NCBI GenBank assembly: GCA_030698495.1
Contig: JAUYKA010000028.1
Span: forward strand, 1 to 35,737
Reading direction: 5' to 3'
DNA from: a bacterium
Lineage (GTDB): Bacteria > Patescibacteriota > Andersenbacteria > UBA10190
Length of the DNA: 35,737 bases
A program made the translations under genes and the position numbers. The notes beneath the pieces were generated by a model. The model was not told where the DNA came from and did not search any database. It saw only the letters and a program-made list of their open reading frames with translations. Positions 108 to 21,336 of the stretch are shown here, one piece after another (the first letter of the stretch is position 1; each line of letters begins with the position of its first letter).

Positions 108-161
108 TTACAAAAACCGCCAAATGTCCGTACCTAAAACAGATTTGGTGTGAGCAGATTT

Positions 162-190
162 TTGACCAAATCCTCCTTCCCCCGTACATT
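162..190 (+). promoter_or_regulatory. Promoter of repeat unit copy A, probably leaderless
   Basis: TTGACC at 162-167 and TACATT at 185-190 are separated by 17 bases, and ATG follows at 197, six bases after the -10 box. That places the expected transcription start at the A of the ATG. The same arrangement is present in copy B although the spacer has diverged there, which supports function for the two hexamers. Confidence 0.5.
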
Positions 191-336
191 TGCTCCATGG
201 CTTTACAGATCGGCATACGCAGGACAGCATCCGAACCTTCACGCCGAGCCAAGTCGAAGCGCCGCCCTTCAAATTTACTTTCCCGAAACCCCAGCCCATA
301 AAAGGCCGGATTATTGTAAATTGGGACGAACTTGGC
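162..336 (+). repeat. Copy A of a duplicated promoter plus short ORF unit
   Basis: This block matches 1139-1343 in the same orientation. The first 50 or so bases (-35, -10, leaderless ATG at 197 and the start MALQIGI) are nearly identical, and differences inside those codons are synonymous. Further on, similarity continues at protein level in a different frame (the one containing TTG at 190): FKFTFPKPQPIKGRIIV against FTFTFWPPKPRKARVIV in copy B, with several synonymous codon changes. The open frame goes on to 573, but the part beyond about 375 runs antisense through the DUF4325 gene and is probably not coding. The product is not recognised. See the finding on the conserved frame change. Confidence 0.6.
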
Positions 337-5566: not shown

Positions 5567-8506
5567 TTATTGCTTCTCGATCTTACGCAGAGCGTAATCG
5601 AACATCTTCTCGCGCACATATTCTCGAAGGTCAGGATTGTTGGTTAGCTGTTCCCAGAGCCGTTGGTCATTTTCATACTGATCGTCATATTTGTCTTTGA
5701 ATGAATCCGCAAACTTAAGACTTGCGCCATGCCGACTGCTATTTTTCACCACGTCCTTGAACTCCTCATCAGAAGCCAATGCCTCCGCCATTTTACTCAG
5801 CGTTTTCTGTTGTTCCTCACCAAATTCCGCGCCCCATTGTTTGTTAACAGTCCGAATAATTTCAGATAACACTTCAGTTTCTTCCTCCTGCTTCTCCAAC
5901 TCACCATCTCCCTCATCTTCCTTAAGATCGGTTTCGCTTTCATCAAGCGCAATAGATCCACTCATTTTTCGCACAACACGAATATCCTCTAGATCAAGCA
6001 AATCCAAAATATTCAGTGGGCCACCACGCGAATCGCGTGGAAGCTTCTTCAGTAAATACTTAAGAAACAAAAACAACTTCTCATGAGATACATCTACAAA
6101 ATCCAATACCGATGCCACAAACGGATAGCTCTTCGTATATCGATAAACCTTCGATTTGAAGAGTTCATATTTCTCCGGCTCAAGCTTAGTAATATCTTCT
6201 ACATAGTGATCCAAGATGGCATTTGCTTTCTCATGCACACCTTCTGATGCGCCACCCAAAACGCTCGCAAACTCATCAAGAGCATCAGTGGGAATAGGGT
6301 AAACTGCTTGAATATCACGACGGAGATCATTCAAAGTATTCACGTCAGTACCTTCCGACAGGATTGTAGTCGTATAGTACGGATCAAACGCTTCTTTTAT
6401 ATCTTCAGCGTCATTAACAAAGTCCAAAACAAATACTTCATCCTTGTCTGGTGCAGTGCGGTTGAGACGACTTAGTGTCTGAACTGCCTGGACACCAGAC
6501 AGCGTCTTGTCGACGTACATAGCAGTTAGTAGTGGCTGATCAAATCCTGTCTGATATTTCTCAGCCACAATTAAGAATTTGTAGGCAGGTTTCTTAAACT
6601 CCTCTGCAGTATGAGACTCTGGAATTCCGCCATTCATACCTGTCTCGGTATAGGTTTCTCCATCAACCTTGATCGAATCAGTAAACGCAACCAGAGACCG
6701 GTATGAAATCCCATGATCTTTGACATATTTATCGAATGCCAGCTTATATCTCACCGCCGCCTCGCGTGACCGAGTTACGATCATTGCCTTGGCATTGCCG
6801 TCAATTCTGCTACTTACCGTTGTGTCAAAATGGGTCATCATAATATCGATTTTTTGTGTAATCGCATCCTCATGCAGATCCACATAGCGAATTATGGTCG
6901 TGAGCGCACGATTTCGTGGCACTTCTGGATCATCCGGTAAATCCTCAATCATTTTGAAGTACCGCTTATAGGTCACATAATTCTTCAACACATCGAGGAT
7001 AAATCTCTCCTCGATCGCTTGCTTCATCGAACACAGGCTAAATGGCCGGTACGACCCATCCTCCATGCGCGTGCCAAATCGTTCTATCGTCTGAGACTTT
7101 GGCGTAGCTGTAAATGCAAAGTAACTCAAATTACCTGGCTGTTTCCGGTTCTCTACTTGCTGGAGTATCCAATCTTCCTCGGTTTCGTACTCGCCACCAA
7201 GAACCTCGTTGATAGTGCGCGAAGTCTCGCCAGATTGCGACGAGTGAGCTTCATCGATAATCAAGCCAAATTTCTTACCCGGTAGCTTTTCTATAATTTC
7301 AGCTACTACAGGAAATGCCTGAATCGTCGTGGTGATCACCTTTGCACCCGACTCTAGCGCATTCTTTAATTGCTGAGACTTACTCGACTTTTCATCAATC
7401 GCCACCAAGTATCCTTGCGTCTGTTCAAACGCGGAGACCGTTTCGCGCAATTGCTGATCCAGCGCGCGCCGGTCAGTCATAACGATCACCGTATCAAACA
7501 CCTTCTCATTGGCATCATTATGCAACTCAGCCAACCGAAAGGCCGTCCAAGCAATTGTCATGCTTTTACCACTACCTGCGCTGTGTTGAACCAAGTAGTT
7601 ATCACCAACACCATTCCTGTTTACCGAGTCGATAATATCCGACACCGTTTTCCGCTGATGAAATCGGGGAAATGCCTGAATCTCAACTGGATACTCCCTT
7701 CCGTCCTTTCCCTCTTTTATTTCGGTAAAAACGTGAATAAAATTCTTTAGCAAATCATGCCAACTGTCCGGCGACCACACATCCTCCCACAAATACTTCG
7801 TTCGGTGACCATCTTCTGACGGGGGATTGCCCGCCCCATTCTTATATCCCTGGTTAAACGGCAAAAAGAAGGTGCTTTGCTTCGCTAACTTTGTCGTAAC
7901 GTAAACCGCATCTGTATCGACGGCAAAGTGAGCCGCACAGCGCCTAAATGTGAACAGTAATTCTCTTGGATCCCTGTCCGTCCTATATTGCCTCATTGCA
8001 TGCCTAACCGTCTGCCCCGTGATTGCGTTCTTTAGCTCCGCAGTAGCAATAGGAATACCATTCACAAAAAGCACTAGGTCTACTGACTGCTCCGTTTTCT
8101 CGCTGAAATACACCTGACGCATCACTGACCAAATGTTCATTTTATATAGTTGCTGCACTTCTGGATTCAACCCACTCGTGGGCTTGAAGTGCATCATCTC
8201 CAAACGAACCGGACCTTCCTCAATCCCATTGCGAAGCACATCAATGACACCACGACTTGATAACTCATTAGCTACACGCTCAATCAATCGCTCCTCCAAC
8301 CTTTCGCCATACATCTCCTCCAGCCGCTCCATTTTTTCTTGTTGTGTCGATCGCAAAAACTCAAACAATAACTCATGATCCAGCACATGCTTCTTGTCGT
8401 AACTACTTTCAGCATCCCGCAGCCTATACCCATGCATATCGCCCAACACTTTAAATATATGCTTCTCAAATGCTTCTTCTTTCAGGTTTTTGAGTGTAGG
8501 TGACAT
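5567..8506 (-). CDS. hsdR: Type I restriction enzyme, R (endonuclease and translocase) subunit
   Basis: The subunit cuts unmodified DNA after ATP-driven translocation as part of the HsdR2M2S complex. The N-terminal nuclease domain shows D143 and E157-L-K159 in an SVDLVLFVNG...TAELKN context. The SF2 motor has Walker A HSAGSGKSM near 309-316, DEAH at 418-421 and FTATPK near 465-470. A QTGFDQPLL stretch and a QTLSRLNR arginine finger form motifs V and VI. The charged, glutamate-rich C-terminal region is the usual assembly domain. At 979 residues it is a normal size and appears intact. The start at 8506 lies two bases after the Trypco2-like gene and the stop two bases before the Cas4-like gene. 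Confidence 0.95.
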   Translation of the reverse strand: MSPTLKNLKEEAFEKHIFKVLGDMHGYRLRDAESSYDKKHVLDHELLFEFLRSTQQEKMERLEEMYGERLEERLIERVANELSSRGVIDVLRNGIEEGPVRLEMMHFKPTSGLNPEVQQLYKMNIWSVMRQVYFSEKTEQSVDLVLFVNGIPIATAELKNAITGQTVRHAMRQYRTDRDPRELLFTFRRCAAHFAVDTDAVYVTTKLAKQSTFFLPFNQGYKNGAGNPPSEDGHRTKYLWEDVWSPDSWHDLLKNFIHVFTEIKEGKDGREYPVEIQAFPRFHQRKTVSDIIDSVNRNGVGDNYLVQHSAGSGKSMTIAWTAFRLAELHNDANEKVFDTVIVMTDRRALDQQLRETVSAFEQTQGYLVAIDEKSSKSQQLKNALESGAKVITTTIQAFPVVAEIIEKLPGKKFGLIIDEAHSSQSGETSRTINEVLGGEYETEEDWILQQVENRKQPGNLSYFAFTATPKSQTIERFGTRMEDGSYRPFSLCSMKQAIEERFILDVLKNYVTYKRYFKMIEDLPDDPEVPRNRALTTIIRYVDLHEDAITQKIDIMMTHFDTTVSSRIDGNAKAMIVTRSREAAVRYKLAFDKYVKDHGISYRSLVAFTDSIKVDGETYTETGMNGGIPESHTAEEFKKPAYKFLIVAEKYQTGFDQPLLTAMYVDKTLSGVQAVQTLSRLNRTAPDKDEVFVLDFVNDAEDIKEAFDPYYTTTILSEGTDVNTLNDLRRDIQAVYPIPTDALDEFASVLGGASEGVHEKANAILDHYVEDITKLEPEKYELFKSKVYRYTKSYPFVASVLDFVDVSHEKLFLFLKYLLKKLPRDSRGGPLNILDLLDLEDIRVVRKMSGSIALDESETDLKEDEGDGELEKQEEETEVLSEIIRTVNKQWGAEFGEEQQKTLSKMAEALASDEEFKDVVKNSSRHGASLKFADSFKDKYDDQYENDQRLWEQLTNNPDLREYVREKMFDYALRKIEKQ

Positions 8507-8508
8507 AG

Positions 8509-8865
8509 CTATATTTCAAAATCGTTACGATTCTCTCTATTTATCGCTTCAATCTGCGCTTGCTGTTGCGCGTCTTCCTCTTTGGTCATTGCTTCTATAT
8601 GGACACCAAATTTTACGCGACTTACTGTTGAATTTTTGTTTTCTTTGGCAATATCTCCACCACCTTCAGCAAATTGCAGAACGCGAATACCAGCCTTGCC
8701 ACTTTTAGAGTTTTTCTCCTCAACAGCAACGGCAATATCAAATTCAACCGTGCGCTGATCCTTTGTATCGGAAAATCTTATATCGCGCCGCGTTTCTCCC
8801 CGAGCTTCATCGACAGCTTTGTCTATACTAACCAATACATTTTTTACGAATTCTTGTAGGTTCAT
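8509..8865 (-). CDS. Trypco2-like small protein between hsdS and hsdR
   Basis: The 118-residue protein begins with a helix (LQEFVKNVLVSIDKAVDEAR). A beta segment TVEFDIAVAVEEK, a glycine-rich middle (FAEGGGDIAKENKN) and STVSRVKFGVHIEA follow. This order is typical of the Trypco2 (trypsin-co-occurring) domain, whose proteins occur beside trypsin-like or other effectors in bacterial conflict systems. No trypsin-like gene is visible here. Its ATG overlaps the hsdS stop by four bases and it ends two bases before hsdR, so it is a true member of the restriction operon. It may be an adaptor or regulator. The family call is from pattern memory and should be tested by a profile search. Confidence 0.65.
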   Translation of the reverse strand: MNLQEFVKNVLVSIDKAVDEARGETRRDIRFSDTKDQRTVEFDIAVAVEEKNSKSGKAGIRVLQFAEGGGDIAKENKNSTVSRVKFGVHIEAMTKEEDAQQQAQIEAINRENRNDFEI

Positions 8866-10148
8866 AGTTTGATTCTTCCTGTTACAGCACTGTAGATAGT
8901 CGAAGCCTTAAACTCCAAAAGTTTTTCTATTTCCTCCGTAGTTTTTTCTATCAAATCATCTATGCGACTTGTCTCTTGATCCAAATGTTTAACTATCTCA
9001 TCTTGCTCACCCCTATCGGGGTATGAACAAATAAAATCCTGAATAAAGAGGGTCGGCACTCTCTGCTGTCCAGCAGACCCGTGCATTTCTAATTCTCCTA
9101 AGCTTCGGAAGAAATGGTTCATTGTCACATAGTAAAGAAACCGTGAATTCAATTCGCCGAGTGGTCTGAGTACATGAAACTCGGTTGAGCCAAAGCCAAC
9201 CCCATTGAGCAAGCCTCTTACCGCTGCCCCTTTGTAGTTCTCAAAGCAGGGAGTGATCTTCGCCACAATAACATCCCCGTTCGCGAAGTACGTATACCCA
9301 GAATAGACAGCATTTAAATCTTTTTCTTCAGATAAATCCAACGCGCCAGTTTCAGAAACCAACGGCATTGGTAAGAAAGTGACTTTAATATTTTCTAAAT
9401 TAGAAACTTTGCTCCTTTTAGGATTTATATCTGTTAAGAAGCGAAGCCTTTTGCGATTCCAACTTTTTGGCGTACTACTCACATTCCCAAGATCAATATC
9501 TATATCCTTACGATATTCACTCTGCTTAACAGCTTCAGTAATAACTGCAACCCGCTGTTGTCTAAGAAGCTCAATAAGTTTTTTCTTTTTCTCGATTACT
9601 TCAATGATTGCTGCAAGCTTATTATCCAGATACTCCACGATTTTTTCTTGTACATCTCGCGGAGGACATAACACTGGCAATTTCTTAAAGTCTGAAAAAT
9701 CAGCCGTTTGCCTAACTCCACCACCCAAGAAGTAAAAGACTTTTTGTTTATCATATGCCCTGAGCAAGTAATTCAAATATTCTGGCTTATAACACCTCTC
9801 CACTTTCACTGCAACATAAGCCGATGTGATAATTCCTCGCTCCCTCACCAAGGCCGATCGCAAACTTTTTTTATCATTCTGGAGATCGGTCAATCTTAGT
9901 ACGATTTGTCCTGGAGCAACTATCTGATATGTCTCAAACGATGCGGGAAGTAAGCCAAAATAACCCTCTATATCTTTTTTTATAATTTTCCCGTAGCTGA
10001 GAGAGAGTAGGTTCTTCTCTTGCAGTCCATCATTCTTTATTTTCGTCTGTGATAAATATGCGCGAGCAGGTTTTACTTCCCAATTCTCTGGATAGTCTTC
10101 AAACCAAGGCAATTGCGATTCTTGAGTTGTGGCTGAAGCAATAGACAT
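8862..10148 (-). CDS. hsdS: Type I restriction-modification, S (specificity) subunit
   Basis: The subunit recognises the bipartite DNA target for the methylase and restriction complex. Two target-recognition domains are visible. The first starts after PWFEDYPENWEVKPARAYL and is followed by a coiled conserved region (VQEKIVEYLDNKLAAIIEVIEKKKKLIELLRQQR). The second starts near KSWNRKRLRFLTDI and ends with a matching helix (DEIVKHLDQETSRIDDLIEKTTEEIEKL). With 428 residues it is a full-length two-domain HsdS. It starts three bases after hsdM. Target specificity cannot be read from the sequence. Confidence 0.93.
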   Translation of the reverse strand: MSIASATTQESQLPWFEDYPENWEVKPARAYLSQTKIKNDGLQEKNLLSLSYGKIIKKDIEGYFGLLPASFETYQIVAPGQIVLRLTDLQNDKKSLRSALVRERGIITSAYVAVKVERCYKPEYLNYLLRAYDKQKVFYFLGGGVRQTADFSDFKKLPVLCPPRDVQEKIVEYLDNKLAAIIEVIEKKKKLIELLRQQRVAVITEAVKQSEYRKDIDIDLGNVSSTPKSWNRKRLRFLTDINPKRSKVSNLENIKVTFLPMPLVSETGALDLSEEKDLNAVYSGYTYFANGDVIVAKITPCFENYKGAAVRGLLNGVGFGSTEFHVLRPLGELNSRFLYYVTMNHFFRSLGELEMHGSAGQQRVPTLFIQDFICSYPDRGEQDEIVKHLDQETSRIDDLIEKTTEEIEKLLEFKASTIYSAVTGRIKL

Positions 10149-10151
10149 AAC

Positions 10152-12188
10152 TTACACTTGTTTCATTAGCTCAAGAATCTTACCCTCAATCTCTTTGATC
10201 TCTGCTTCAATCTCACTCGGGTCACGTGGCGGCACATACTTATAAAAATACCGAGTAAACGGAATCTCGTAACCAACCTTCCCCACTTTACCGTCCTTTT
10301 CATCTACTACGCTTTCGTCGATCCAAGCGTCGGGAATGTATGGCTTCACTTCACGCTCAAAGTACTCTTGAATATCTTCCTTGAGCGGCACACGCTCTAT
10401 GTCTTTCAGCTCGTTATTTGATTCAGGGTTTCTGTCCTTGTCCATGCAAATCTCAGCTTCGTCATTATGCCGACCAATTTCTTTCCAGATGATTTTCTTG
10501 TACTTGGTCGGGACTTTAATGCCAGCATGCTCAAATGACGCCTCTAAGTCATCCAGAAATTTATCTCGGTTCATGTATGTGCTGCCGGACAGACTCTGTA
10601 GGGCTCCAAATATCTTGCCACGCAACTCTTGCCAAACAGTATTCTCCTCTTCGCCTTTCTTTCCTTTTTTCTTGCTGGGTAAATCGTTGAGAAAATCTTT
10701 TTGGTTTTTCACGCGCTCAATTGATTCTTCATTTAGCTCAAACTTCAAACGCAAAGGGCGCTGAATGGTGACTGCACGATAACCAAATTCACGAGTGTCG
10801 AATATTTTCACATTCCCGTTTGTATTTTCATCTACATAATCCTCGACAATTTCTTTGAGATTGCTGTCGGAAATTTCGTATCGCTTATCACCCAAGTTTT
10901 TGCGCAGCTGCGTTTTTCGGTTACGCGCATCTACCAATCGAACTTTGTTTCTTCTGTTGCTTGGCTTGCGAGTAGAAAATATCCAAACGTATGTTGGAAT
11001 CCCAGTGTTAAAGAAAAGCTTTTCGGGTAAAGCAATAATCGTATCAATATAATCCTTCTCAAACAGCCAGCGGCGAATATCACTTTCTCCACGTCCTGCA
11101 TCACCCGTAAAGAGTGGCGAGCCATTTGTAATAATGACTGCATCGCTTCCACCTGCTTCTCGCTCCTTCAATTTTGAAATAACATGCTGAATGAATAGCA
11201 GTTGTCCATCAGAAATACTTGGCAGTCCAGCCCCAAACCTGCCAGCAAATCCCCTTTCTGCCTCGTGATTTACTGCTTTGGCATCTTTCTTCCATTCCAC
11301 GCCATAGGGAGGATTGGAAATAACATAGTCGAACTGTGTACCGACATACTCATCATTTGAGAGTGTGCTTGCCTTACTGTGTTCAGGGTCACCGCCCTTG
11401 ATCCGCTCCGGGTCTTCACCCTTGAGCAGCATATCTGCCTTACAGATAGCATACGTTTGGCTATTAAGCTCTTGGCCGAATAGATAAACATTGGCCTTAT
11501 CGTTGTAGTGATCGAGAATAAATTCTTTACCCACCGTTAGCATTCCTCCTGTACCACAGGCCGGATCGTACAAGGTAATCGATACACCTGCCTTCTGTAG
11601 CTTATCCTTTTCGCCAGCAAACATCAGTGAGGTCATCAACCGCACAACGTCCCTGGGCGTATAATGTTCCCCAGCCGTTTCATTAGACTGCTCAGCAAAA
11701 CGGCGAATAAGGTCTTCGAATGCTGTCCCAATAACATCATTCGGTACCCTATCAGGATGAAGATCTATTTTTTTGAACTCCTTCAGAATCAAATACAGGA
11801 GGTCGCCGCCCTTGAGCCGCTCAAGCTGTACTTCAAATTTGAACTTTTTGAATATGTCCTGAACATTGGGGCTGAAACCATTGATATAATTCCGGGTGTT
11901 TCTCTCGATATGCGTCGGATCATCGAGTAACGTGCTGATAGTAAAAGGAGAAGTATTGTAGAAATCGTATCCGGTAATTCTGCGCAAGATGCTCAAATCG
12001 GACACCTTTCCGTCCAGCTCGTTGTACCGGGTAATAACTTTATCTTTTGTTGGTTCAAGCACCGCATCTAATCGCTTTAGAACGGTAAAGGGTAATATGA
12101 CGTCTTGATATTCATGCGCTTTCCATGAGCCGCGCAGCAAATCAGCTACATTCCAGATCGTATTTGATATGTTCTTGTGGTTACTCAT
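10152..12188 (-). CDS. hsdM: Type I restriction-modification, M (adenine methyltransferase) subunit
   Basis: This N6-adenine methyltransferase modifies the target chosen by HsdS and is required for restriction. The N-terminal helical domain (IWNVADLLRGSWKAHEYQDV) is typical of HsdM. The SAM-binding motif DPACGTGGM lies near residue 208 and the catalytic NPPY near residue 292. The C-terminal extension continues past residue 550 with a charged region and a final coiled segment, as in larger HsdM proteins. I chose ATG at 12188, which overlaps the upstream winged-helix gene's stop as ATGA; an in-frame ATG at 12200 is possible. The gene appears intact. Confidence 0.95.
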   Translation of the reverse strand: MSNHKNISNTIWNVADLLRGSWKAHEYQDVILPFTVLKRLDAVLEPTKDKVITRYNELDGKVSDLSILRRITGYDFYNTSPFTISTLLDDPTHIERNTRNYINGFSPNVQDIFKKFKFEVQLERLKGGDLLYLILKEFKKIDLHPDRVPNDVIGTAFEDLIRRFAEQSNETAGEHYTPRDVVRLMTSLMFAGEKDKLQKAGVSITLYDPACGTGGMLTVGKEFILDHYNDKANVYLFGQELNSQTYAICKADMLLKGEDPERIKGGDPEHSKASTLSNDEYVGTQFDYVISNPPYGVEWKKDAKAVNHEAERGFAGRFGAGLPSISDGQLLFIQHVISKLKEREAGGSDAVIITNGSPLFTGDAGRGESDIRRWLFEKDYIDTIIALPEKLFFNTGIPTYVWIFSTRKPSNRRNKVRLVDARNRKTQLRKNLGDKRYEISDSNLKEIVEDYVDENTNGNVKIFDTREFGYRAVTIQRPLRLKFELNEESIERVKNQKDFLNDLPSKKKGKKGEEENTVWQELRGKIFGALQSLSGSTYMNRDKFLDDLEASFEHAGIKVPTKYKKIIWKEIGRHNDEAEICMDKDRNPESNNELKDIERVPLKEDIQEYFEREVKPYIPDAWIDESVVDEKDGKVGKVGYEIPFTRYFYKYVPPRDPSEIEAEIKEIEGKILELMKQV

Positions 12189-12484
12189 ATATGGCTCCAA
12201 TACTGCTTGACCTCAGTTAGCTGGGTTCTGATTCCATCCTTCGAGTTTTCTACTTCATCCGAAAGTCGCCATAACTTATCGCGACCACCCTGTACCTTAA
12301 CGAGGTAGCCATTTTTATGCAGCGACCCCAATATCGCACCGACTGAGCGACCATTCATATCATCTGTTTTCGTTTTCTCAACTACATCAGATGTGCGAAA
12401 TGATGGCCGACGGAAAGACAAAATAACATCCAGCATTTTCTGCTGCGCTCCCGGCAAATCCTTTATGGTCTTCAAATCACTCAT
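12185..12484 (-). CDS. Winged-helix DNA-binding protein, probable regulator of the restriction operon
   Basis: The 99-residue protein has the layout of a MarR-like winged helix: a first helix (GAQQKMLDVILSF), a TSDVVEKT and RSVGAILGSLHKNGYL helix-turn-helix, and a beta wing (LVKVQGGRDKLWRLS). It opens the restriction operon and its stop overlaps the hsdM start (ATGA). AGGA lies seven bases before the ATG. A perfect palindrome at 12516-12529 lies 32 bases upstream of the start codon and could be its operator. Control genes that delay restriction are common in such operons, so an autoregulatory role is reasonable but inferred. Confidence 0.7.
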   Translation of the reverse strand: MSDLKTIKDLPGAQQKMLDVILSFRRPSFRTSDVVEKTKTDDMNGRSVGAILGSLHKNGYLVKVQGGRDKLWRLSDEVENSKDGIRTQLTEVKQYWSHI

Positions 12485-12538: not shown

Positions 12539-12567
12539 TGGTTATGGCAATATGAGACTACAATCAA
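12539..12567 (-). promoter_or_regulatory. Possible promoter of the restriction operon
   Basis: On the minus strand TTGATT (12562-12567) is followed after 17 bases by TAACCA (12539-12544). The -35 is good and the -10 weak. The predicted start near 12532 puts the palindrome at 12516-12529 in the early transcribed region. Confidence 0.3.
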
Positions 12568-12600
12568 ATTTGCCTAAACCGTGCCTTTTGGCGCGGCATG

Positions 12601-12721
12601 GCATGCAAAGCGTAGGACACACTAAACCCGTCGTTTAGCAGCGTGTCCTACGTCATGCGGGGAAACCCGTATGGGGATCGAAAGGTCCCGGCTGGCGGCG
12701 GGCTTTGTGTTTCTCCACCAG
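12601..12721 (+). ncRNA. Strongly structured RNA candidate, multi-stem with GNRA loops
   Basis: Several stems can be drawn on the plus strand. The outer stem is 12603-12610 with 12703-12710 (CAAAG with CTTTG plus wobble pairs). A long hairpin pairs CGTAGGACAC (12611-12620) with GTGTCCTACG (12643-12652), continued by CTAAAC with GTTTAG. A third stem, CATGCGGG (12654-12661) with CCCGTATG, is closed by GAAA. Directly adjacent, GGGATC (12674-12679) pairs with GGTCCC, again closed by GAAA. CTGG at 12692-12695 may pair with CCAG at 12718-12721 to form a pseudoknot. GAAA tetraloops occur only in this orientation. It lies 30 bases before a plus-strand gene, so it could be a leader element, a ribozyme or an independent RNA. 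I do not recognise the class. Confidence 0.6.
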
Positions 12722-12751
12722 GACAGCTAATTACTAAAAATAATCAAAAAT

Positions 12752-13297
12752 ATGAATAAATTTATAGTTGCCATCGTAGTGATTCTTACATTAACTATTC
12801 TTGGTGGCGGTGCTTATATCTTAGTATTGCGTAATAAACTACCGGCAAGTAGCTCGGTGCCAACCAATAGCGAGACAACTAAGCAAACTAAAGACAATAA
12901 ACGTGGCGAACCAAAAACAGAAGAATTTGTGAGCAAGCGTGTGCAGGAATTCTGGGAGGCCGCCAAGTTCAATGATCATCGGGCCAAATATCGTTTACTG
13001 GACAATCAACTCAAGTCGCAACTATCAGAGGATGAGTATCTTCAGAGGCAGGAATGGCTGGATAAAAACGATTTAAGCGGTGTTATCCAAATTGAGAAAG
13101 CGGAGGTCGGCACGGTTACTCTTCTTGAGAATGCGGCCGAAGTGAGAATAACGATCACTGCCAATACAGGAGAATTTTCTGACATTACCAAACTTATTTA
13201 TGAGGATGGTGAGTGGCATAAGGTATTTGAGTCATACGACACGCTTGGTATTGGTAAATCCTTTGAGGAGTTTGTAGTAGACAACGAAAGCATATAA
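12752..13297 (+). CDS. Membrane-anchored protein of unknown function, NTF2-like outer domain
   Basis: The 181-residue product has an N-terminal hydrophobic segment (residues 5-26, FIVAIVVILTLTILGGGAYILV) without a lipobox, so it is probably a membrane anchor with the rest outside. A low-complexity serine, threonine and lysine linker follows. The rest (FVSKRVQEFWEAAKFNDHRAKYRLL, then beta strands ending in IYEDGEWHKVFESYD) resembles the cystatin/NTF2-like domains found in many extracytoplasmic anchored proteins, where D-G-x-W-x-K is typical. It is followed after two bases by the nuclease-domain gene, so the two are probably co-transcribed. The structured RNA lies just upstream. The function is not known. 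Confidence 0.75.
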   Translation: MNKFIVAIVVILTLTILGGGAYILVLRNKLPASSSVPTNSETTKQTKDNKRGEPKTEEFVSKRVQEFWEAAKFNDHRAKYRLLDNQLKSQLSEDEYLQRQEWLDKNDLSGVIQIEKAEVGTVTLLENAAEVRITITANTGEFSDITKLIYEDGEWHKVFESYDTLGIGKSFEEFVVDNESI

Positions 13298-13299
13298 CT

Positions 13300-14337
13300 A
13301 TGGTGAACCTCAAACCATCTCAACTTTTCACCGGCAAGGCAAAACTGATTACCATTCCAGTCGTGGTCATTGCCGCTCTGGCACTCTGGCCATTTACCAT
13401 TGGAGGGTTACTGGTATATGCCGTTTACCGCTACATGCCGCAAAGCAGACTGCGTAATATTGCCGTTGCCGTTATTGTTATTCCGACTTTGTTCATCGGT
13501 GGCACATGGACGTGGGCATTTTTCTCAAAATCCCCGACACCGCAGGTTACTGAAACCGTGTTGCAGCAATCAGAAGAGACACCGTTAGCTGAAGCCGAGG
13601 AAGTAGCGACGTCTTCGCCTGAAGTGGAGGCAGTAGTCGAAGCTGTGGTTCAACCTGTTGAGACGACACAGGCGGTGTCCACTGAAGTCGAGCAACAGCC
13701 AGCTGCAGTTGAGGGGGTTTTAGTAAAGCGTGTCATCGACGGTGACACTATTGAGCTTGAGACTGGACAAAAAGTCCGTTACATCGGAATAGACACGCCG
13801 GAGACTGTACACCCGGACAAGCCGGTGCAGTGTTTTGGCAAAGAAGCCTCAGCCAAAAACACCAGTTTAGTAGCAGGTAAACGAGTTCGTTTGGAGAAGG
13901 ATGTGTCCGAGACCGATCGTTATGGCCGTCTTCTTCGTTATGTTTATGTGGGGGACACGTTCGTGAACGACTATCTTGTGCGGCAAGGCTATGCTAATTC
14001 ATCTTCATATCCTCCGGACGTAAAATACCAAGAACAATTTAAACAAGCTGAACAGGAAGCCAGGGTTAACAAGCGTGGGTTGTGGGGATCTGCTTGTTCG
14101 GACGGCAGTGGTAGTGCTTCGTCGGGTGCTGCCATAGTAGCGCCCGCTCCGGATACACAGCCGACAACGCCACAGTGCGACATCAAAGGTAACATTACAG
14201 GCGAGAAAATATATCATGTCCCTGGCTGTGCCAGCTACGATAAGACGGTGATTGATACCAGCTCAGGGGAAAGATATTTCTGTACGGAGGCGGAGGCAGT
14301 AGCGGCTGGGTGGCGGAAGGCGAAAAATTGTCCGTAA
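13300..14337 (+). CDS. Membrane-anchored staphylococcal-nuclease-type endonuclease
   Basis: The protein has 345 residues. Two hydrophobic segments at about 17-44 and 52-76 anchor it, followed by a long acidic linker (about 80-138). The SNase domain follows at about 139-265: VIDGDT near 145-150, VRYIGIDTPET with R160, D165 and E168, and DRYGRLLRY with R210. These are the calcium-binding and catalytic positions of thermonuclease. The last 55 residues (CDIKGNITGEKIYHVPGC ... YFCTEAEAVAAGWRKA) form a cysteine-containing domain often fused to such nucleases in CPR bacteria. It probably degrades extracellular DNA or RNA for nucleotide uptake or host interaction; that role is inferred. All catalytic residues are present. 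Confidence 0.9.
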   Translation: MVNLKPSQLFTGKAKLITIPVVVIAALALWPFTIGGLLVYAVYRYMPQSRLRNIAVAVIVIPTLFIGGTWTWAFFSKSPTPQVTETVLQQSEETPLAEAEEVATSSPEVEAVVEAVVQPVETTQAVSTEVEQQPAAVEGVLVKRVIDGDTIELETGQKVRYIGIDTPETVHPDKPVQCFGKEASAKNTSLVAGKRVRLEKDVSETDRYGRLLRYVYVGDTFVNDYLVRQGYANSSSYPPDVKYQEQFKQAEQEARVNKRGLWGSACSDGSGSASSGAAIVAPAPDTQPTTPQCDIKGNITGEKIYHVPGCASYDKTVIDTSSGERYFCTEAEAVAAGWRKAKNCP

Positions 14338-14359: not shown

Positions 14360-14815
14360 TTATTTTTTTTCAAAGCTCGCTGGCACCTCGACAATTATCC
14401 TCTCAAATTTTACAGGTTTATTTTCGGGTGAGTTAAAACCACCGTGTTTGTGGCGTCTCACTGGGGCAAGCTCTGGATCATGCTTTTCGAGCCAACGCCA
14501 CGCGCTGTTCACATCGGTACTGAGTGATTCGAAGACTTTTTTGTAGGCAATGAGAGTTGGACGTTGGCGCCACTGATCTATCAGATCGCGAAAGTTGGGA
14601 TTTTGCTTCATCCACCCATGGAGGGTAGATAGGCTTACGCGTGCATAAGCGGCGGCTTGCTGGTGATTGGCACCGATCAAGTAGACCTCTTGGAGCTTTG
14701 TGATCGTTTCTTCATTAAATTTAGTAGGACGACCACAGACGCAGGCTGACTTGGATAGGTGGCAATTCCGACAGTTGGCTGGTCGGCCAACCTTATTTTT
14801 TAGCTGTTCGCTCAT
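14360..14815 (-). CDS. Terminase-small-subunit-like DNA-binding protein with N-terminal cysteine cluster
   Basis: From ATG at 14815 the product has 151 residues. A cysteine cluster C15-x2-C18-x6-C25-x-C27 may bind zinc. A homeodomain-like helix-turn-helix follows (HQQAAAYARVSLSTLHGWMKQNPNFRDLIDQWR), a pattern seen in phage terminase small subunits and related phBC6A51-type proteins. A basic segment and EVPASFEKK close it. An in-frame ATG further upstream (14863) exists, but a perfect extended -10 box ends six bases before the chosen ATG, which favours a leaderless start here. No terminase large subunit is visible, so it may be a regulator of the integrative element. It converges with the nuclease gene. 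Confidence 0.7.
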   Translation of the reverse strand: MSEQLKNKVGRPANCRNCHLSKSACVCGRPTKFNEETITKLQEVYLIGANHQQAAAYARVSLSTLHGWMKQNPNFRDLIDQWRQRPTLIAYKKVFESLSTDVNSAWRWLEKHDPELAPVRRHKHGGFNSPENKPVKFERIIVEVPASFEKK

Positions 14816-14821
14816 GTTTTG

Positions 14822-14830
14822 ATTATACCA
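14822..14830 (-). promoter_or_regulatory. Extended -10 promoter, leaderless start of the terminase-like gene
   Basis: The minus strand reads TGGTATAAT, a perfect extended -10 element, with six bases between its end and the ATG at 14815. Transcription should start at or next to the start codon. No good -35 is present at 17 bases, as is usual with an extended -10. Confidence 0.6.
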
Positions 14831-15048
14831 CCTACCCCCTGTTTCATATCCAAAAACGTCCATTAATCGGAGATTATCGATCTCTGCATTGCCCTAAATC
14901 AACTAATTAAGGCATGTTCAGGACTATTTTTCTTGCATGCATCCAAATACGTTTTCGGATGCCACTATCATTGGTTCTAGGCAGCTCCAAGTAGGCTTTT
15001 CAGTTTGACGGGTGATAAAGTTAGAGGTGAGCTAAGGAGTTAGCAAAT

Positions 15049-16288: not shown

Positions 16289-16543
16289 ATGGAAACTCGC
16301 ACTAAAGAAATTGTTGATTTGGGACTTACCGCCGCGCTTACTACGCGTGGTTTTTTGTTGCTCGATATCCAGCCAGTGGATGCACGACGCTTCGCCTTTA
16401 TTTTTTCCGCCAGCGAAGAGCTCGAGCAAGAAATTCAGAAATATTGGAACAACACACTCACTGTTCCCGCCCAGAGATATTTCGACCAGATAAAGGTAAT
16501 CAAGAACAGGCTTTACGCCCAAAAACAGTATGGCAATAAGTAA
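16289..16543 (+). CDS. DUF5659-domain small protein
   Basis: From ATG at 16289 the 84-residue protein reads T-K-E-I-V-D-L-G-L-T-A-A-L then RGFLLLDIQP, RRFAFIF, EELEQEIQKYWN, and a final helix with IKVIKNRLYAQ. This is the DUF5659 pattern (a lineage-specific small protein of CPR and phage-like elements that opens with T.D...A..L...G). Upstream residues in the same frame overlap the previous gene and are not used. Its stop overlaps the following ATPase gene by 14 bases, so the two are translationally coupled. No ribosome binding site is obvious. The function is unknown. Confidence 0.75.
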   Translation: METRTKEIVDLGLTAALTTRGFLLLDIQPVDARRFAFIFSASEELEQEIQKYWNNTLTVPAQRYFDQIKVIKNRLYAQKQYGNK

Positions 16544-17648
16544 CGATAAAAAAGAACCGCTCCCGACCAAGGAAACGGCTTCTTCGAAGCCAAATATATC
16601 AAATGAGCAACCACAAGGCTACGACGCATTTCTTCAAGCGGGAAAGAAACTAAAGGAGAATAAGGAGGCCATTGCGAAACCGACTAACCTAACCTCACAT
16701 CTAAATACCTTTAGAAACGAGGGGAGGTTAGCTCCGACATACAGCATTACCCAGCTGCTGCTAGAGAAACCAGAACCACTTACCTTTTTCTCTGTACTTG
16801 GGCGAGAAGGAATCTTAGTCAAGGGATGGACAACAATGTTCTCCTCCTATCCCAAACTGGGAAAGACCGAGTTGATATACCAAATCGCCTGTGAGCTAGC
16901 TAGCGCAGGGAATATCATACTAATAATTACAGAGGAGCCAAAACTCGTCTGGCATGTACGAATTCAGCGCGGCGAGACTAATGGCAATAACATCGGCATC
17001 TGCTTCGCGCTCGGTAAAAAGGACATTGTCGAGGAGCTGATTGCAACTACCAGCGCTTCAATAATCATTATTGATACCGTTCGAAGCGTTCTTGGTCTGG
17101 AAAATGAAAATGATAATTCCGAAATCTCACGAGTACTTGCACCGATCATCAACGCAGCCCGCGCGAACAATAAGACGCTGATACTACTTCACCATTCGCG
17201 CAAAGGTGGAGGACAAAACGGCGAAGGCATAACCGGCGGTCACGCATTCCTTGGCATCGTAGATGCCAGCATCGAGATCAGGCCCCTAGACAATAAACCA
17301 CGCCGACGCCTGCTATCAGGAGCTGCGCGCCTATTTCAGATGCCCGAATTGATTTATGAAATGAATGACAACGGAACCTTACAAATTGTCGGCAGCCCCG
17401 AAGACCTAAAACTTGAGTCAGTACAAAAAAATGTTTTGACCATTCTAAATGACGGTTGGCAGTCTACAGCAGAAATAGAAAATCAGCTTACTCCAAGTCC
17501 AAGCCGTTCTCAATTAACAGATGCACTGCAACAACTAGCCACAGACAGAAAAATTGACCGGCAACCGCTTGTCAGCGAGGGCAGCCGCCCTGGCGTGACC
17601 TACAAATGGAAACTGAAGTCTTCGAAAGGAGGTGAGACCAGTGACTGA
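16530..17648 (+). CDS. RepA/RecA-like ATPase (AAA_25 type)
   Basis: The 372-residue protein has a RecA-like ATPase core at about 75-275. Walker A is at 105-113 (SSYPKLGKT), in which the first glycine of GxxxxGKT is replaced by serine, as happens in some RepA-like ATPases (GxPKxGKS form). Walker B is IIIIDTVRS with D182. A LILLHHSRKGGG segment follows, the motif 3 histidine region of plasmid RepA helicases and mobile-element ATPases. The last 90 residues form a winged helix (VLTILNDGWQSTAEIENQL). Such proteins help replicate or maintain mobile DNA. It overlaps DUF5659 by 14 bases and the next gene by eight. Confidence 0.88.
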   Translation: MAISNDKKEPLPTKETASSKPNISNEQPQGYDAFLQAGKKLKENKEAIAKPTNLTSHLNTFRNEGRLAPTYSITQLLLEKPEPLTFFSVLGREGILVKGWTTMFSSYPKLGKTELIYQIACELASAGNIILIITEEPKLVWHVRIQRGETNGNNIGICFALGKKDIVEELIATTSASIIIIDTVRSVLGLENENDNSEISRVLAPIINAARANNKTLILLHHSRKGGGQNGEGITGGHAFLGIVDASIEIRPLDNKPRRRLLSGAARLFQMPELIYEMNDNGTLQIVGSPEDLKLESVQKNVLTILNDGWQSTAEIENQLTPSPSRSQLTDALQQLATDRKIDRQPLVSEGSRPGVTYKWKLKSSKGGETSD

Positions 17649-18566: not shown

Positions 18567-20231
18567 ATGTCATCATCCAACACCAATATTAGGTACGCCA
18601 CAGGTAGCGCGCAACTCCTTATTCCTGCCTGGTATAGGAGGGTGTCTACCAGTGATCAGGAAGACCAACAGACCATAGAAAATCAGGCCATTGATCTTAT
18701 TGAGCGCATCAAGGCCGATGGTCTGGAAATTCAGCCACATCTACAATTCGATGATGACGGCTGGACTGGCACTATTTTAAGACGACCTGGTCTCGATAAA
18801 ATGTTGGAAGCTGCCCGCGCCGGGGAGTTCAATGTCCTCTACGTTTATGACCGAGGAAGATTGGCTCGTGACTTTGTTGATGGTGAAGTGATCGTCCGCG
18901 AGTTGGCGGATTACGATGTTAAATTGGTAACGCTCCACGATCCGCCATCTGACACCCCTGAGCAAAAAGTTATGCAAATGATGAGTGGCGTATTTCATCA
19001 CTATGAGCGTGTAAAGATATTGGAACGCACGCGCCGCGGCAGGGAACGCAAGGCGAAGGAGAAAACGCTAATGTCCGGCCAAGCGTTATACGGATACGAT
19101 CGTATCGCAAAGATAGAAGAGACACCGGCTCATTGGGCAATCAATAAGTATGAACAAAAAGTTGTCTTCGATATTTTTGACTGGTTCGGTCGAAACTCAA
19201 TTTCAATCAACGAGATCCGCCAGAAACTGTACGACAACGGCATTCGATCGAAGAAAGGAAACACGTGGTGGTCTACGAGTGTTATCACCCGGATGTTAGC
19301 TCAGGATGTATATATAACTGGCAAGCATTACTACAATACATCGGAGGCCTGCCCACCCAAGAAACCAATGAAGCAAGGATATAAGCGTGTAAAGAACAGC
19401 AGTAAAAAGCCACGGCCGAAAGAGGATTGGATTTTAGAACAGCAAGTCCCGATACTACTCAACCGACCGGGAGACATGCAGCTGTTCAAGAAGGTTCAAA
19501 AAATGCTGGCGGACAACAAGAAATACGCTCGACAGCGTCGCCGACATCAATATCTTTTATCTGGTTTTATTTACTGTGAATGTGGCAAGCCGCGTGCTGG
19601 CGATGGCAGCAGCCGCCATGGACATCACTACTATCGCTGTACCGAAAGGATTTACTTGCCCAAAGATAAATGTGTATGTGCTGCTATGGGCGTCAATGCA
19701 GACATATTAGACGCCACCTTTTGGAAAGAGTTAACTGACTTTTTAAGCAAGCCTAACTTGCTGCGAGAACAGGCGAAGCAGTGGCTCGTAAATGAAGCAA
19801 AACGTGTAAGCGCATCAGATTCCAAGCGCAACCGTATTCTCAAAGACATTAAGAAAATTAAGGAAACCGAGGAGCGATATCAACGCGCCTACGGCGACCA
19901 CAATATGAGCTATAAGCAATTCGAGAAGCTCATGCGAGAATGCCGCGACAAGAAGGCTGGGCTGCGCAAGCAGTTGAAGGAGCTTGCGTCCAAGATTGAC
20001 GAGCAGCTTGGTATCGACATGAGCCAACTCGATGAACTATGTCGAGAAGCTAAGGTCACACTACAAAAACTTGATTTTAGCAACAAACGTGCCATTATAA
20101 GGGATCTGATTGATAAGATAACTGTATATGGACAGAAGCAAGTTGACATATGTGGTCATATCCCGTTAACCACCGAAAGGTTGGGATCGTATGTTGAGAG
20201 TCGGCATCGTCGGACTGCCCAACGTCGGTAA
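18567..20231 (+). CDS. Large serine recombinase (integrase)
   Basis: The 554-residue protein has an N-terminal resolvase domain with AWYRRVSTSDQ (catalytic S27, supporting R25) and YVYDRGRLARD. The recombinase domain follows (ALYGYDRI ... ITRMLAQDVYITGKHYYN). A zinc ribbon contains CECGKPRAG and YYRC, and a long coiled coil runs at about 410-490. It is intact in size for a phage- or transposon-type large serine integrase. No ribosome binding site is obvious; the first 20 residues precede the usual start of the fold, so initiation could lie slightly downstream. The last 14 codons overlap ychF (from 20191) in another frame. This is expected if the gene ends at the attachment site, so the C-terminal residues may come from the host sequence. 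Confidence 0.92.
   Translation: MSSSNTNIRYATGSAQLLIPAWYRRVSTSDQEDQQTIENQAIDLIERIKADGLEIQPHLQFDDDGWTGTILRRPGLDKMLEAARAGEFNVLYVYDRGRLARDFVDGEVIVRELADYDVKLVTLHDPPSDTPEQKVMQMMSGVFHHYERVKILERTRRGRERKAKEKTLMSGQALYGYDRIAKIEETPAHWAINKYEQKVVFDIFDWFGRNSISINEIRQKLYDNGIRSKKGNTWWSTSVITRMLAQDVYITGKHYYNTSEACPPKKPMKQGYKRVKNSSKKPRPKEDWILEQQVPILLNRPGDMQLFKKVQKMLADNKKYARQRRRHQYLLSGFIYCECGKPRAGDGSSRHGHHYYRCTERIYLPKDKCVCAAMGVNADILDATFWKELTDFLSKPNLLREQAKQWLVNEAKRVSASDSKRNRILKDIKKIKETEERYQRAYGDHNMSYKQFEKLMRECRDKKAGLRKQLKELASKIDEQLGIDMSQLDELCREAKVTLQKLDFSNKRAIIRDLIDKITVYGQKQVDICGHIPLTTERLGSYVESRHRRTAQRR
20180..20231. other. Candidate right attachment site, mobile element / ychF junction
   Basis: The recombinase frame crosses the ychF start and ends inside the first codons of ychF. 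Codon style changes from mobile-element to host style at this point. Large serine integrases often lie directly beside one attachment site, so the crossover should be in or near this stretch. The matching left site was not found in this window. Confidence 0.4.
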
Positions 20232-21336
20232 GTCCACCTTATTCAACGCCCTAACTAACCCGGCCTTCGCCAAGGCTACGGCGGGCGCAGGCAAGCTCGC
20301 CGAGGCGGCTAATTTTCCTTTTACCACTATTGAACCGAACGTCGGTGTAGTGCCGGTACCGGATGAACGCTTAGAAGTACTGACCAAAATGTTTAAATCG
20401 GTAAAAACCGTTCCCACCTCCATTGAATTTGTCGATATTGCCGGTCTGGTAAAAGACGCTCATGCCGGCGAAGGTTTGGGTAATAAGTTTCTCTCCCACA
20501 TCAGAGAAGTGGATGCCATCGTTCATGTCGTGCGCTTTTTCGAAGACGGCAACGTCACTCATGTCGCCAACAAAGTTGATCCGGCTTCCGATGCTGCCAC
20601 TATTGCCACTGAATTGGCGCTGGCCGACCTGGAAACCATCAAACGTCTCATCGCCAATGCCGAGATGGATGTAAAAAAACAAATTAAAAACGCGCCGGCG
20701 CGTCTGGCCGGTCTCCACCAGCTGGAGACTGGCCTGGCCAAAGGCACCCAAGCCCGCGACATCTCGCTCGATGACAAAAACCAAAAAATACTGGGCGCCC
20801 TGCCACTGCTTACGCTTAAACCGGTACTATATGTCGCCAACATAAGCGAACAGCAGATTGCTAACGCCGATGAGATTATAAAAACGCTATCAAGCCAAGA
20901 CAAAAATACCGTCCTCCCTCTATCCGTCAAAATCGAACAGGAATTAATCAGCCTGCCGGACGAAGAGAGAAAAACTTTCTTAAAAGAATACGGCCTGCGG
21001 GATACCGGCTTAAACCGCCTGATAAAATCCTGCTACCAAGTACTTGGTCTCATCACCTTCCTGACCACCGGTCCGGACGAAACTCGCGCTTGGACCGTCA
21101 CTACCGGCAGTACCGCGCCCCAGGCCGCCGGCAAAATCCATTCCGACTTTGAGCGCGGCTTCATCCGTGCCGAAACCGTTGCCTATCAAGATTTAATTGC
21201 AGCCGGCTCCCAACTTCGCCAAGGCTCCGCTGGGCAAGCTTACGCCGCCGCGCGCGCTCAAGGCAAAGTACGCGACGAAGGCAAAGAATATATCGTGCAA
21301 GACGGCGATATCATAATATTCAAGTTCAACGTCTAA
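20191..21336 (+). CDS. ychF: Ribosome-associated ATPase YchF (OLA1 family)
   Basis: This is a conserved P-loop ATPase that binds ribosomes and affects stress responses. MLRVGIVGLPNVGKSTLFNALT gives the G1 loop, FVDIAGLVKDAHAGEGLGNKFLSHIREVDAI gives G3 and surroundings, and the C-terminal TGS region ends GKEYIVQDGDIIIFKFNV. At 381 residues it is about 18 longer than Escherichia coli YchF (363). The excess is explained by two insertions, AFAKATAGAGKLA near residue 25-37 and LRQGSAGQAY near residue 342-351, both encoded by copies of one REP-like repeat. The recombinase gene overlaps its first 41 bases, so any native promoter has been displaced. Confidence 0.95.
   Translation: MLRVGIVGLPNVGKSTLFNALTNPAFAKATAGAGKLAEAANFPFTTIEPNVGVVPVPDERLEVLTKMFKSVKTVPTSIEFVDIAGLVKDAHAGEGLGNKFLSHIREVDAIVHVVRFFEDGNVTHVANKVDPASDAATIATELALADLETIKRLIANAEMDVKKQIKNAPARLAGLHQLETGLAKGTQARDISLDDKNQKILGALPLLTLKPVLYVANISEQQIANADEIIKTLSSQDKNTVLPLSVKIEQELISLPDEERKTFLKEYGLRDTGLNRLIKSCYQVLGLITFLTTGPDETRAWTVTTGSTAPQAAGKIHSDFERGFIRAETVAYQDLIAAGSQLRQGSAGQAYAAARAQGKVRDEGKEYIVQDGDIIIFKFNV
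20265..20301 (+). repeat. REP-like repeat copy 1, in frame inside ychF
   Basis: The stretch beginning CTTCGCCAAGGCTACGGCGG is shared with 21214-21240 apart from a few substitutions and a six-base insertion (GCAGGC). It encodes AFAKATAGAGKLA, a segment absent from normal YchF just before the conserved EAANFPF. Confidence 0.65.
21214..21240 (+). repeat. REP-like repeat copy 2, in frame inside ychF
   Basis: CTTCGCCAAGGCTCCGCTGG followed by GCAAGCT matches copy 1 but is read in another phase, giving QLRQGSAGQAY. It is an extra loop before the final YchF beta strands. Confidence 0.6.

What the first reader, a model, noticed from the sequence alone, without database searches (positions are those of the whole stretch)
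12601..12721. Multi-stem RNA with two adjacent GAAA-capped hairpins and a possible pseudoknot
Five helices can be drawn, two of them directly adjacent and capped by GNRA loops in the plus orientation only, inside a closing stem of eight pairs, and CTGG/CCAG would cross that stem. This density of structure is far above that of the neighbouring gaps and resembles a riboswitch, ribozyme or guide-like RNA. I match it to no class I know.
Basis: partly seen in the sequence, partly recalled or inferred. Interest (0 to 1): 0.66.

Follow-up and report, generated by a model that had tools for sequence, protein, structure and literature searches.

The report
LOOT RNA leading phage cargo genes
The folded RNA is a copy of a known but functionally unexplained RNA family (LOOT), and comparing about 200 copies suggests that it is a control leader in front of membrane, nuclease and DNA-methylase genes carried by phage-like elements in ultra-small Patescibacteria.

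Summary
The structure is real and is not a new class. Window 12571-12689 (+) matches Rfam RF03000, LOOT RNA (85.7 bits, gathering score 46.4).

The helices that Rfam draws covary strongly across 107 homologues. Its CTGG/CCAG belongs to a 3' hairpin that the Rfam model does not cover; across homologues it matches its own partner better than swapped ones (P about 2e-12, n=201), though the window's own copy is unremarkable. The P4 loop is always GAAA and may dock into a conserved CCUAA...AUGG.

Rfam types LOOT as an sRNA gene. Comparison points to a 5' leader: promoter-like motif just upstream, start codon about 55 nt downstream, and downstream genes 77% membrane-anchored against 25% of neighbours.

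Half of the loci lie near a large serine integrase, some with terminase or primase genes. In two viral contigs LOOT precedes a superinfection-exclusion-like gene. In about a fifth of copies a strand of helix P3 is repeated just before the start codon, suggesting a translational switch; this replicated in 81 new copies. In the window that repeat is only marginal (rank 0.05).

The parts
12548..12565 (+). putative promoter end and RNA start: -10-like CAATAT (12548-12553) and ACAATC (from 12560)
   Evidence: inferred from the family pattern: a TANNNT hexamer ends 6-7 nt before ACAAYT in most homologues that have ACAAYT near P1; the window's own boxes are weak matches
12571..12689 (+). LOOT RNA core, Rfam RF03000
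   Evidence: 85.7 bits, gathering score 46.4, full model 1-121
12571..12603 (+). P1 (12571-12574/12600-12603) and P2 (12579-12585/12590-12596) with receptor-like strands CCUAAAC (12573-12579) and GCAUGG (12596-12601)
   Evidence: alignment; covariation; conserved strand pairs
12604..12611 (+).
   Evidence: can pair, but no covariation support
12611..12652 (+). P3, the long variable hairpin (12611-12627/12633-12652)
   Evidence: 83.8% of cells paired with many double changes in its lower part
12654..12673 (+). P4 with GAAA loop 12662-12665
   Evidence: 98.3% of cells paired; loop GAAA in 106 of 106 scorable homologues
12674..12689 (+). P5 with GAAA loop 12680-12683
   Evidence: 94.7% of cells paired
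12692..12721 (+).
   Evidence: own-versus-swapped pairing energy across homologues; the window's own rank is 0.32
12752..13297 (+). first gene behind the RNA: 181-aa protein with N-terminal membrane segment, weak DUF3828 match
   Evidence: E 5e-4, below the Pfam cut-off
13300..14337 (+). second gene: membrane-anchored SNase (nuclease) homologue
   Evidence: PF00565 E 5e-27; a 68% identical protein directly follows a LOOT in another Andersenbacteria genome
14360..14863 (-). phage terminase small subunit homologue (element context)
   Evidence: phrog_4102 E 4e-12
16530..17648 (+). AAA / primase-helicase-like gene (element context)
   Evidence: PF13481 E 1e-15; phrog_239 E 4e-5
18567..20231 (+). 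large serine recombinase (phage-type integrase; element context)
   Evidence: Resolvase + Recombinase + Zn_ribbon_recom; phrog_95 E 5e-83

Best explanation
The element is a LOOT RNA (RF03000) acting in cis as the 5' leader of a short operon (a membrane-anchored 181-aa protein plus a membrane-anchored nuclease) carried by a phage-type, serine-integrase element in a Patescibacterium (inferred Candidatus Andersenbacteria). Shown by sequence comparison: family membership, covarying stems, a position just upstream of start codons with a promoter-like motif in front, and downstream genes that are mostly membrane-anchored proteins, with nucleases and DNA methyltransferases, near integrases. Inferred: the RNA folds into a compact shape (P4 GAAA loop docking into the P1/P2 receptor) that sets whether the downstream cargo gene is translated. 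In about a fifth of copies the 3' strand of P3 can pair either with the P3 5' strand (start region free) or with a copy of that strand next to the start codon (start region blocked), which would make a strand-exchange switch. The window's leader is in the larger group whose coupling to the gene is not identified.
For: RF03000 match. Covariation 0.580 vs 0.193 shuffled. ATG frame of 60 aa or more within 100 nt downstream in 101/115, vs 22/115 off the other end and 25% at random positions. Membrane segment in 77% of downstream proteins vs 25% of other frames in the same loci, 45/64 in the second set. Integrase near 61 of 123 LOOTs, 43 of 52 tblastn cases upstream on the opposite strand, against about 0.037 expected per locus. 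Superinfection-exclusion-like gene right behind LOOT in two viral contigs. Start-region repeat 27/120, replicated 17/81 vs 1.8 expected.
Against: No transcript data. About four fifths of leaders, the window's included, lack a clear start-region repeat. About half of the loci show no integrase within the stretch fetched. The window lacks identified element ends. The membrane-segment measure is a simple hydropathy cut-off. Homologues are related, so the P values overstate independence.
Confidence: 0.7

Rival explanations
1. LOOT is an independent trans-acting sRNA, as Rfam types it, that sits upstream of cargo genes only because both ride on the same elements.
For: Rfam type 'Gene; sRNA'. Downstream genes are very diverse: 78 clusters among 113 proteins. 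Patchy, multi-copy occurrence.
Against: Tight distance to a start codon on the same strand, median 55 nt, 101/115 vs 22/115 on the other side; gene-specific repeat of a P3 strand beside the start codon. No terminator search was made.
Confidence: 0.12
2. The leader is a constitutive 5' structure that protects the mRNA or helps its translation, without any switch; the start-region repeats have another origin, such as copying during element rearrangement.
For: Four fifths of leaders have no such repeat; P3 words recur in different genomes.
Against: The repeat always lies close to the start codon, with P3 5' and 3' strands still complementary, and the alternative pairing has similar predicted energy; it replicates in new genomes.
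Confidence: 0.2
3. LOOT is part of an invertible promoter (phase variation by the neighbouring serine recombinase).
For: Serine recombinases next to surface-protein and DNA-methylase genes.
Against: No flanking inverted repeats found around LOOT in 13 loci examined, apart from matches unrelated to the leader; the recombinases match phage integrases best.
Confidence: 0.03
4. The RNA is a ribozyme or a guide RNA for a nearby nuclease.
For: Compact fold with GNRA loops and a possible pseudoknot.
Against: No match to any other Rfam family above its gathering score; no constant protein partner among the genes behind it.
Confidence: 0.02

Closest known systems
LOOT RNA, Rfam RF03000
   Same: Full-length match with the same five stems, above the gathering score.
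   Different: This report adds a 3' hairpin P6 outside the model, reads the RNA as a cis leader rather than an sRNA gene, and places it in integrative elements.
Riboswitches and other leaders that work by strand exchange at the start codon
   Same: A fold upstream of a start codon, one strand of which has two mutually exclusive partners in about a fifth of copies.
   Different: No ligand, no constant downstream gene, and the exchanged strand varies with the gene. The window's copy does not clearly show it.
GAAA tetraloop / 11-nt receptor contact (class described in PMC3494683)
   Same: Invariant GAAA loop in P4 and conserved CCUAA...AUGG in P1/P2.
   Different: The receptor letters are not identical to the classical ones as I recall them; docking is not shown.
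Prophage cargo ('moron') and superinfection-exclusion genes
   Same: Membrane-anchored cargo near an integrase; matches to phrog_8545 in two viral contigs and phrog_4980 in two genomic loci.
   Different: Here many unrelated cargo genes share one structured RNA leader; I found no such case in the papers searched.

Membership tests
LOOT RNA (RF03000) | covariance-model score at or above the curated gathering score | tested here: met
   85.7 bits vs 46.4
LOOT RNA (RF03000) | all consensus stems P1-P5 present | tested here: met
   full model 1-121 aligned; stems covary across homologues
LOOT RNA (RF03000) | transcribed as RNA | not testable with these tools
   no transcript data held; only promoter-like motif
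Translational riboswitch / strand-exchange leader | located in the 5' leader of a gene | tested here: met
   start codon 62 nt after the core in the window; 101/115 homologues
Translational riboswitch / strand-exchange leader | mutually exclusive pairing that involves the start region | tested here: inconclusive
   met in 27/120 and 17/81 homologues; in the window only marginal (rank 0.53 ungapped, 0.05 gapped)
Translational riboswitch / strand-exchange leader | binds a specific ligand or factor | not testable with these tools
   needs probing or binding assays
GAAA tetraloop / 11-nt receptor | GAAA loop together with a conserved receptor sequence | tested here: inconclusive
   GAAA in 106/106, CCUAA(A/C)C with (G/A)(C/U)AUGG; the classical receptor sequence was compared from memory only
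GAAA tetraloop / 11-nt receptor | docking in three dimensions | not testable with these tools
   needs probing or a structure
Prophage / integrative element cargo | integrase and phage-type genes in the neighbourhood | tested here: met
   window integrase, terminase small subunit, primase-like gene; homologues; viral contigs
Prophage / integrative element cargo | defined element ends (attachment sites) | tested here: not met
   no direct repeat bounding an element found in window 1-24000; so the window is called element-like, not a delimited prophage

The most novel reading that the evidence does not exclude
LOOT is a riboswitch-like leader class spread by Patescibacteria phages and integrative elements. 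One strand of its variable helix P3 is matched to the start region of whichever cargo gene it precedes, so a single RNA scaffold can be re-addressed to new genes, and it gates lysogenic-conversion and superinfection-exclusion proteins in the host cell.
Probability: 0.35. Interest if true: 0.8.

Novelty: new member of a known kind. Interest (0 to 1): 0.55.

Why it matters
LOOT is an orphan RNA family: the papers held here mention it only for its structure. Placing it as the leader of phage and integrative-element cargo in Patescibacteria gives it a testable role and offers a sequence tag for finding cargo and exclusion genes in bacteria that are hard to culture. The start-region repeat gives a direct, mutation-testable prediction for how part of the family works.

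Tried and rejected
A new RNA class: rejected by the RF03000 match. Closing stem as an evolutionarily supported helix: no covariation; an earlier run of that test used a structure string off by one column and should be disregarded. In some searches P6 was placed on an alignment not fitted to it, so its low paired percentage there is not informative; the alignment-free test was used instead. Small GCU/RGC hairpin before the U run: no covariation beyond shuffles. A first pairing test of linker with 3' tail also showed no own-versus-swapped difference. One search's tally of positions where only one strand pairs is biased by construction (pairs were taken from the P3 fold) and is not used. Invertible promoter: no suitable inverted repeats. 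Start-region repeat in the window: not significant ungapped, marginal with gaps. Plasmid and phage nucleotide similarity: no match. Genome pattern scan with the 3' motif: 16 listed records carry a LOOT at 77 bits or more by the model built here; all but one are labelled as Patescibacteria groups, the exception (L177, labelled Neomarinimicrobiota) may be mis-binned. Of 67 viral contigs found by pattern, 3 hold a LOOT. The paper I recall as the original description (doi 10.1093/nar/gkx699) is not held and could not be read.

Full report
What is there. The stretch 12601-12721 folds far better than shuffled sequence (z -4.3), and the whole unit 12560-12730 does too (z -4.9). A search of all Rfam families gives one match in the window: RF03000, LOOT RNA, 12571-12689 (+), 85.7 bits against a gathering score of 46.4. 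The alignment covers the entire model. The genome holds one copy.

Where it occurs. In the window's class 8 of 13 genomes have LOOT, with 1-4 copies each. In a sample of the phylum 83 of 380 do, with up to 7 copies, and 92 of 335 in a second sample. None of 14 control genomes has it. Contig lengths of two relatives (G012:C30, G009:C3) equal those of records named Candidatus Andersenbacteria, and both relatives are in the window's family, so the window is inferred to be Andersenbacteria, a Patescibacterium.

Structure. I fetched the homologous places found, built a model from 50 of them without the closing stem or P6, and aligned 107 matches. The structure counted, which also included the closing stem and P6, scores 0.580 for covariation against 0.193 for shuffles and at most 0.13 for slid partners. 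P1, the outer part of P2, P4 and P5 pair in 94-98% of cells, the inner part of P2 in 83%, and the lower part of P3 in 84%; the tip of P3 is less regular. The P4 loop is GAAA in all 106 scorable sequences. P1/P2 carries CCUAAAC with GCAUGG or CCUAACC with (G,A)UAUGG, and the two halves tend to change together. From memory this resembles the 11-nt GAAA receptor (class described in PMC3494683), so P4 may dock onto P1/P2; this is inference. If P6 and the closing stem both form, they make a pseudoknot.

A leader, not a free-standing sRNA. In 101 of 115 homologues an ATG reading frame of at least 60 aa starts within 100 nt downstream on the same strand. The same test off the other end gives 22 of 115, and random positions 25%. 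The median distance from the Rfam end to the start codon is 55 nt. ACAAYT lies within 25 nt upstream of the core in 78 homologues, and a TANNNT hexamer most often ends 6-7 nt before it. In the window this would put the RNA start near 12560; the gene starts at 12752. No terminator search was made.

The genes behind it. They are diverse (78 clusters of 113) but share traits. Of the first set 77% have a membrane segment, against 25% of the other reading frames in the same loci (P 1e-25), and 45 of 64 in the second set. Recurrent types are zinc-ribbon proteins, SNases (5), DNA methylases (N6/N4 type 5, plus single Dam-like and Dcm-like ones) and serine proteases. In the window the operon is a 181-aa anchored protein and an anchored SNase homologue. 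A 68%-identical SNase directly follows a LOOT in another Andersenbacteria genome.

The element. A large serine recombinase lies near 61 LOOTs in 52 genomes; by tblastn it is near 52 of 123, in 43 of those upstream and on the opposite strand. Density in 16 genomes is about 3.4 per Mb (49 matches in about 14.6 Mb), so about 0.037 would be expected per fetched locus. Terminase subunits and a primase-like protein recur too; 78 of 124 loci carry at least one of five recurrent element genes. The window has a serine recombinase of integrase type (18567-20231), a terminase small subunit (14360-14863) and a primase/helicase-like gene (16530-17648), although element ends were not found. Three IMG/VR contigs carry LOOT, all with a serine recombinase. 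In two of them the gene right behind LOOT matches PHROG 'superinfection exclusion Sie-like' (E 4e-11 and 2e-24), and one of these also has a terminase large subunit. Among the genomic downstream genes two match a superinfection-exclusion family (best E 8e-42).

A possible switch. Reading the leaders side by side I saw that in some the 5' strand of P3, usually from AAAACC or AAATCC onward, is repeated just before the start codon. In the first set 27 of 120 pass a geometric filter, and scores of 10 or more occur in 26 of 121 own pairs but in under 1% of swapped pairs. The filter was chosen on that set. It was then applied unchanged to 81 new copies from other genomes: 17 pass against 1.8 expected (binomial P 2e-12). 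The P3 3' strand can therefore pair with either copy, at similar predicted energy. The repeat is enriched in leaders with CCUAACC (19 of 40 vs 7 of 78, P 4e-6; 12 of 33 vs 5 of 43, P 0.013). This is what a strand-exchange translational switch would look like. The rest of the family does not show it. For the window the ungapped rank is 0.53, and a gapped repeat AGGACA...ACTAAA at 12720-12738 ranks 0.05.

Verdict. What is added is a cis position, a link to phage-type integrative elements and their membrane, nuclease and methylase cargo, a further 3' hairpin, and a start-region repeat in about a fifth of copies. I did not find these statements in the papers held here, which mention LOOT only for its structure. 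The original description could not be read, so priority cannot be judged. Homologues share ancestry, so the P values are guides rather than exact probabilities.

Noticed in passing
window 5567-12484 (-): A type I restriction-modification operon (HsdR-like 5567-8506, HsdS 8862-10148, HsdM 10152-12200, plus a 99-aa frame 12185-12484) is transcribed away from the LOOT unit.
   Followed up: partly
window 18567-21336: The serine recombinase frame (ends 20231) overlaps the first listed start of a YchF-like GTPase gene (20191-21336), followed by recA, ftsK, rpoC and rpoB; this may be the border between the element and core genes.
   Followed up: partly
L177 332-2220: A contig labelled Neomarinimicrobiota carries a LOOT (116.9 bits) directly before a DNA methylase-like gene, with a serine recombinase nearby: transfer beyond Patescibacteria or a mis-binned contig.
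   Followed up: partly
L089, L090, L116 (genome G102): Identical or nearly identical LOOT cores sit exactly at contig ends, with different genes behind them; assembly breaks at a duplicated leader.
   Followed up: no
P3 of homologues: The same 9-nt P3 words recur in LOOTs of different genomes more often than after column shuffling (346 vs 61); relatedness was not removed. The literature also notes 28 unusual cross-covariations in LOOT (PMC7657543).
   Followed up: partly
window 158-239 and 1135-1216: An 82-nt direct repeat, 80% identical, 977 nt apart.
   Followed up: no
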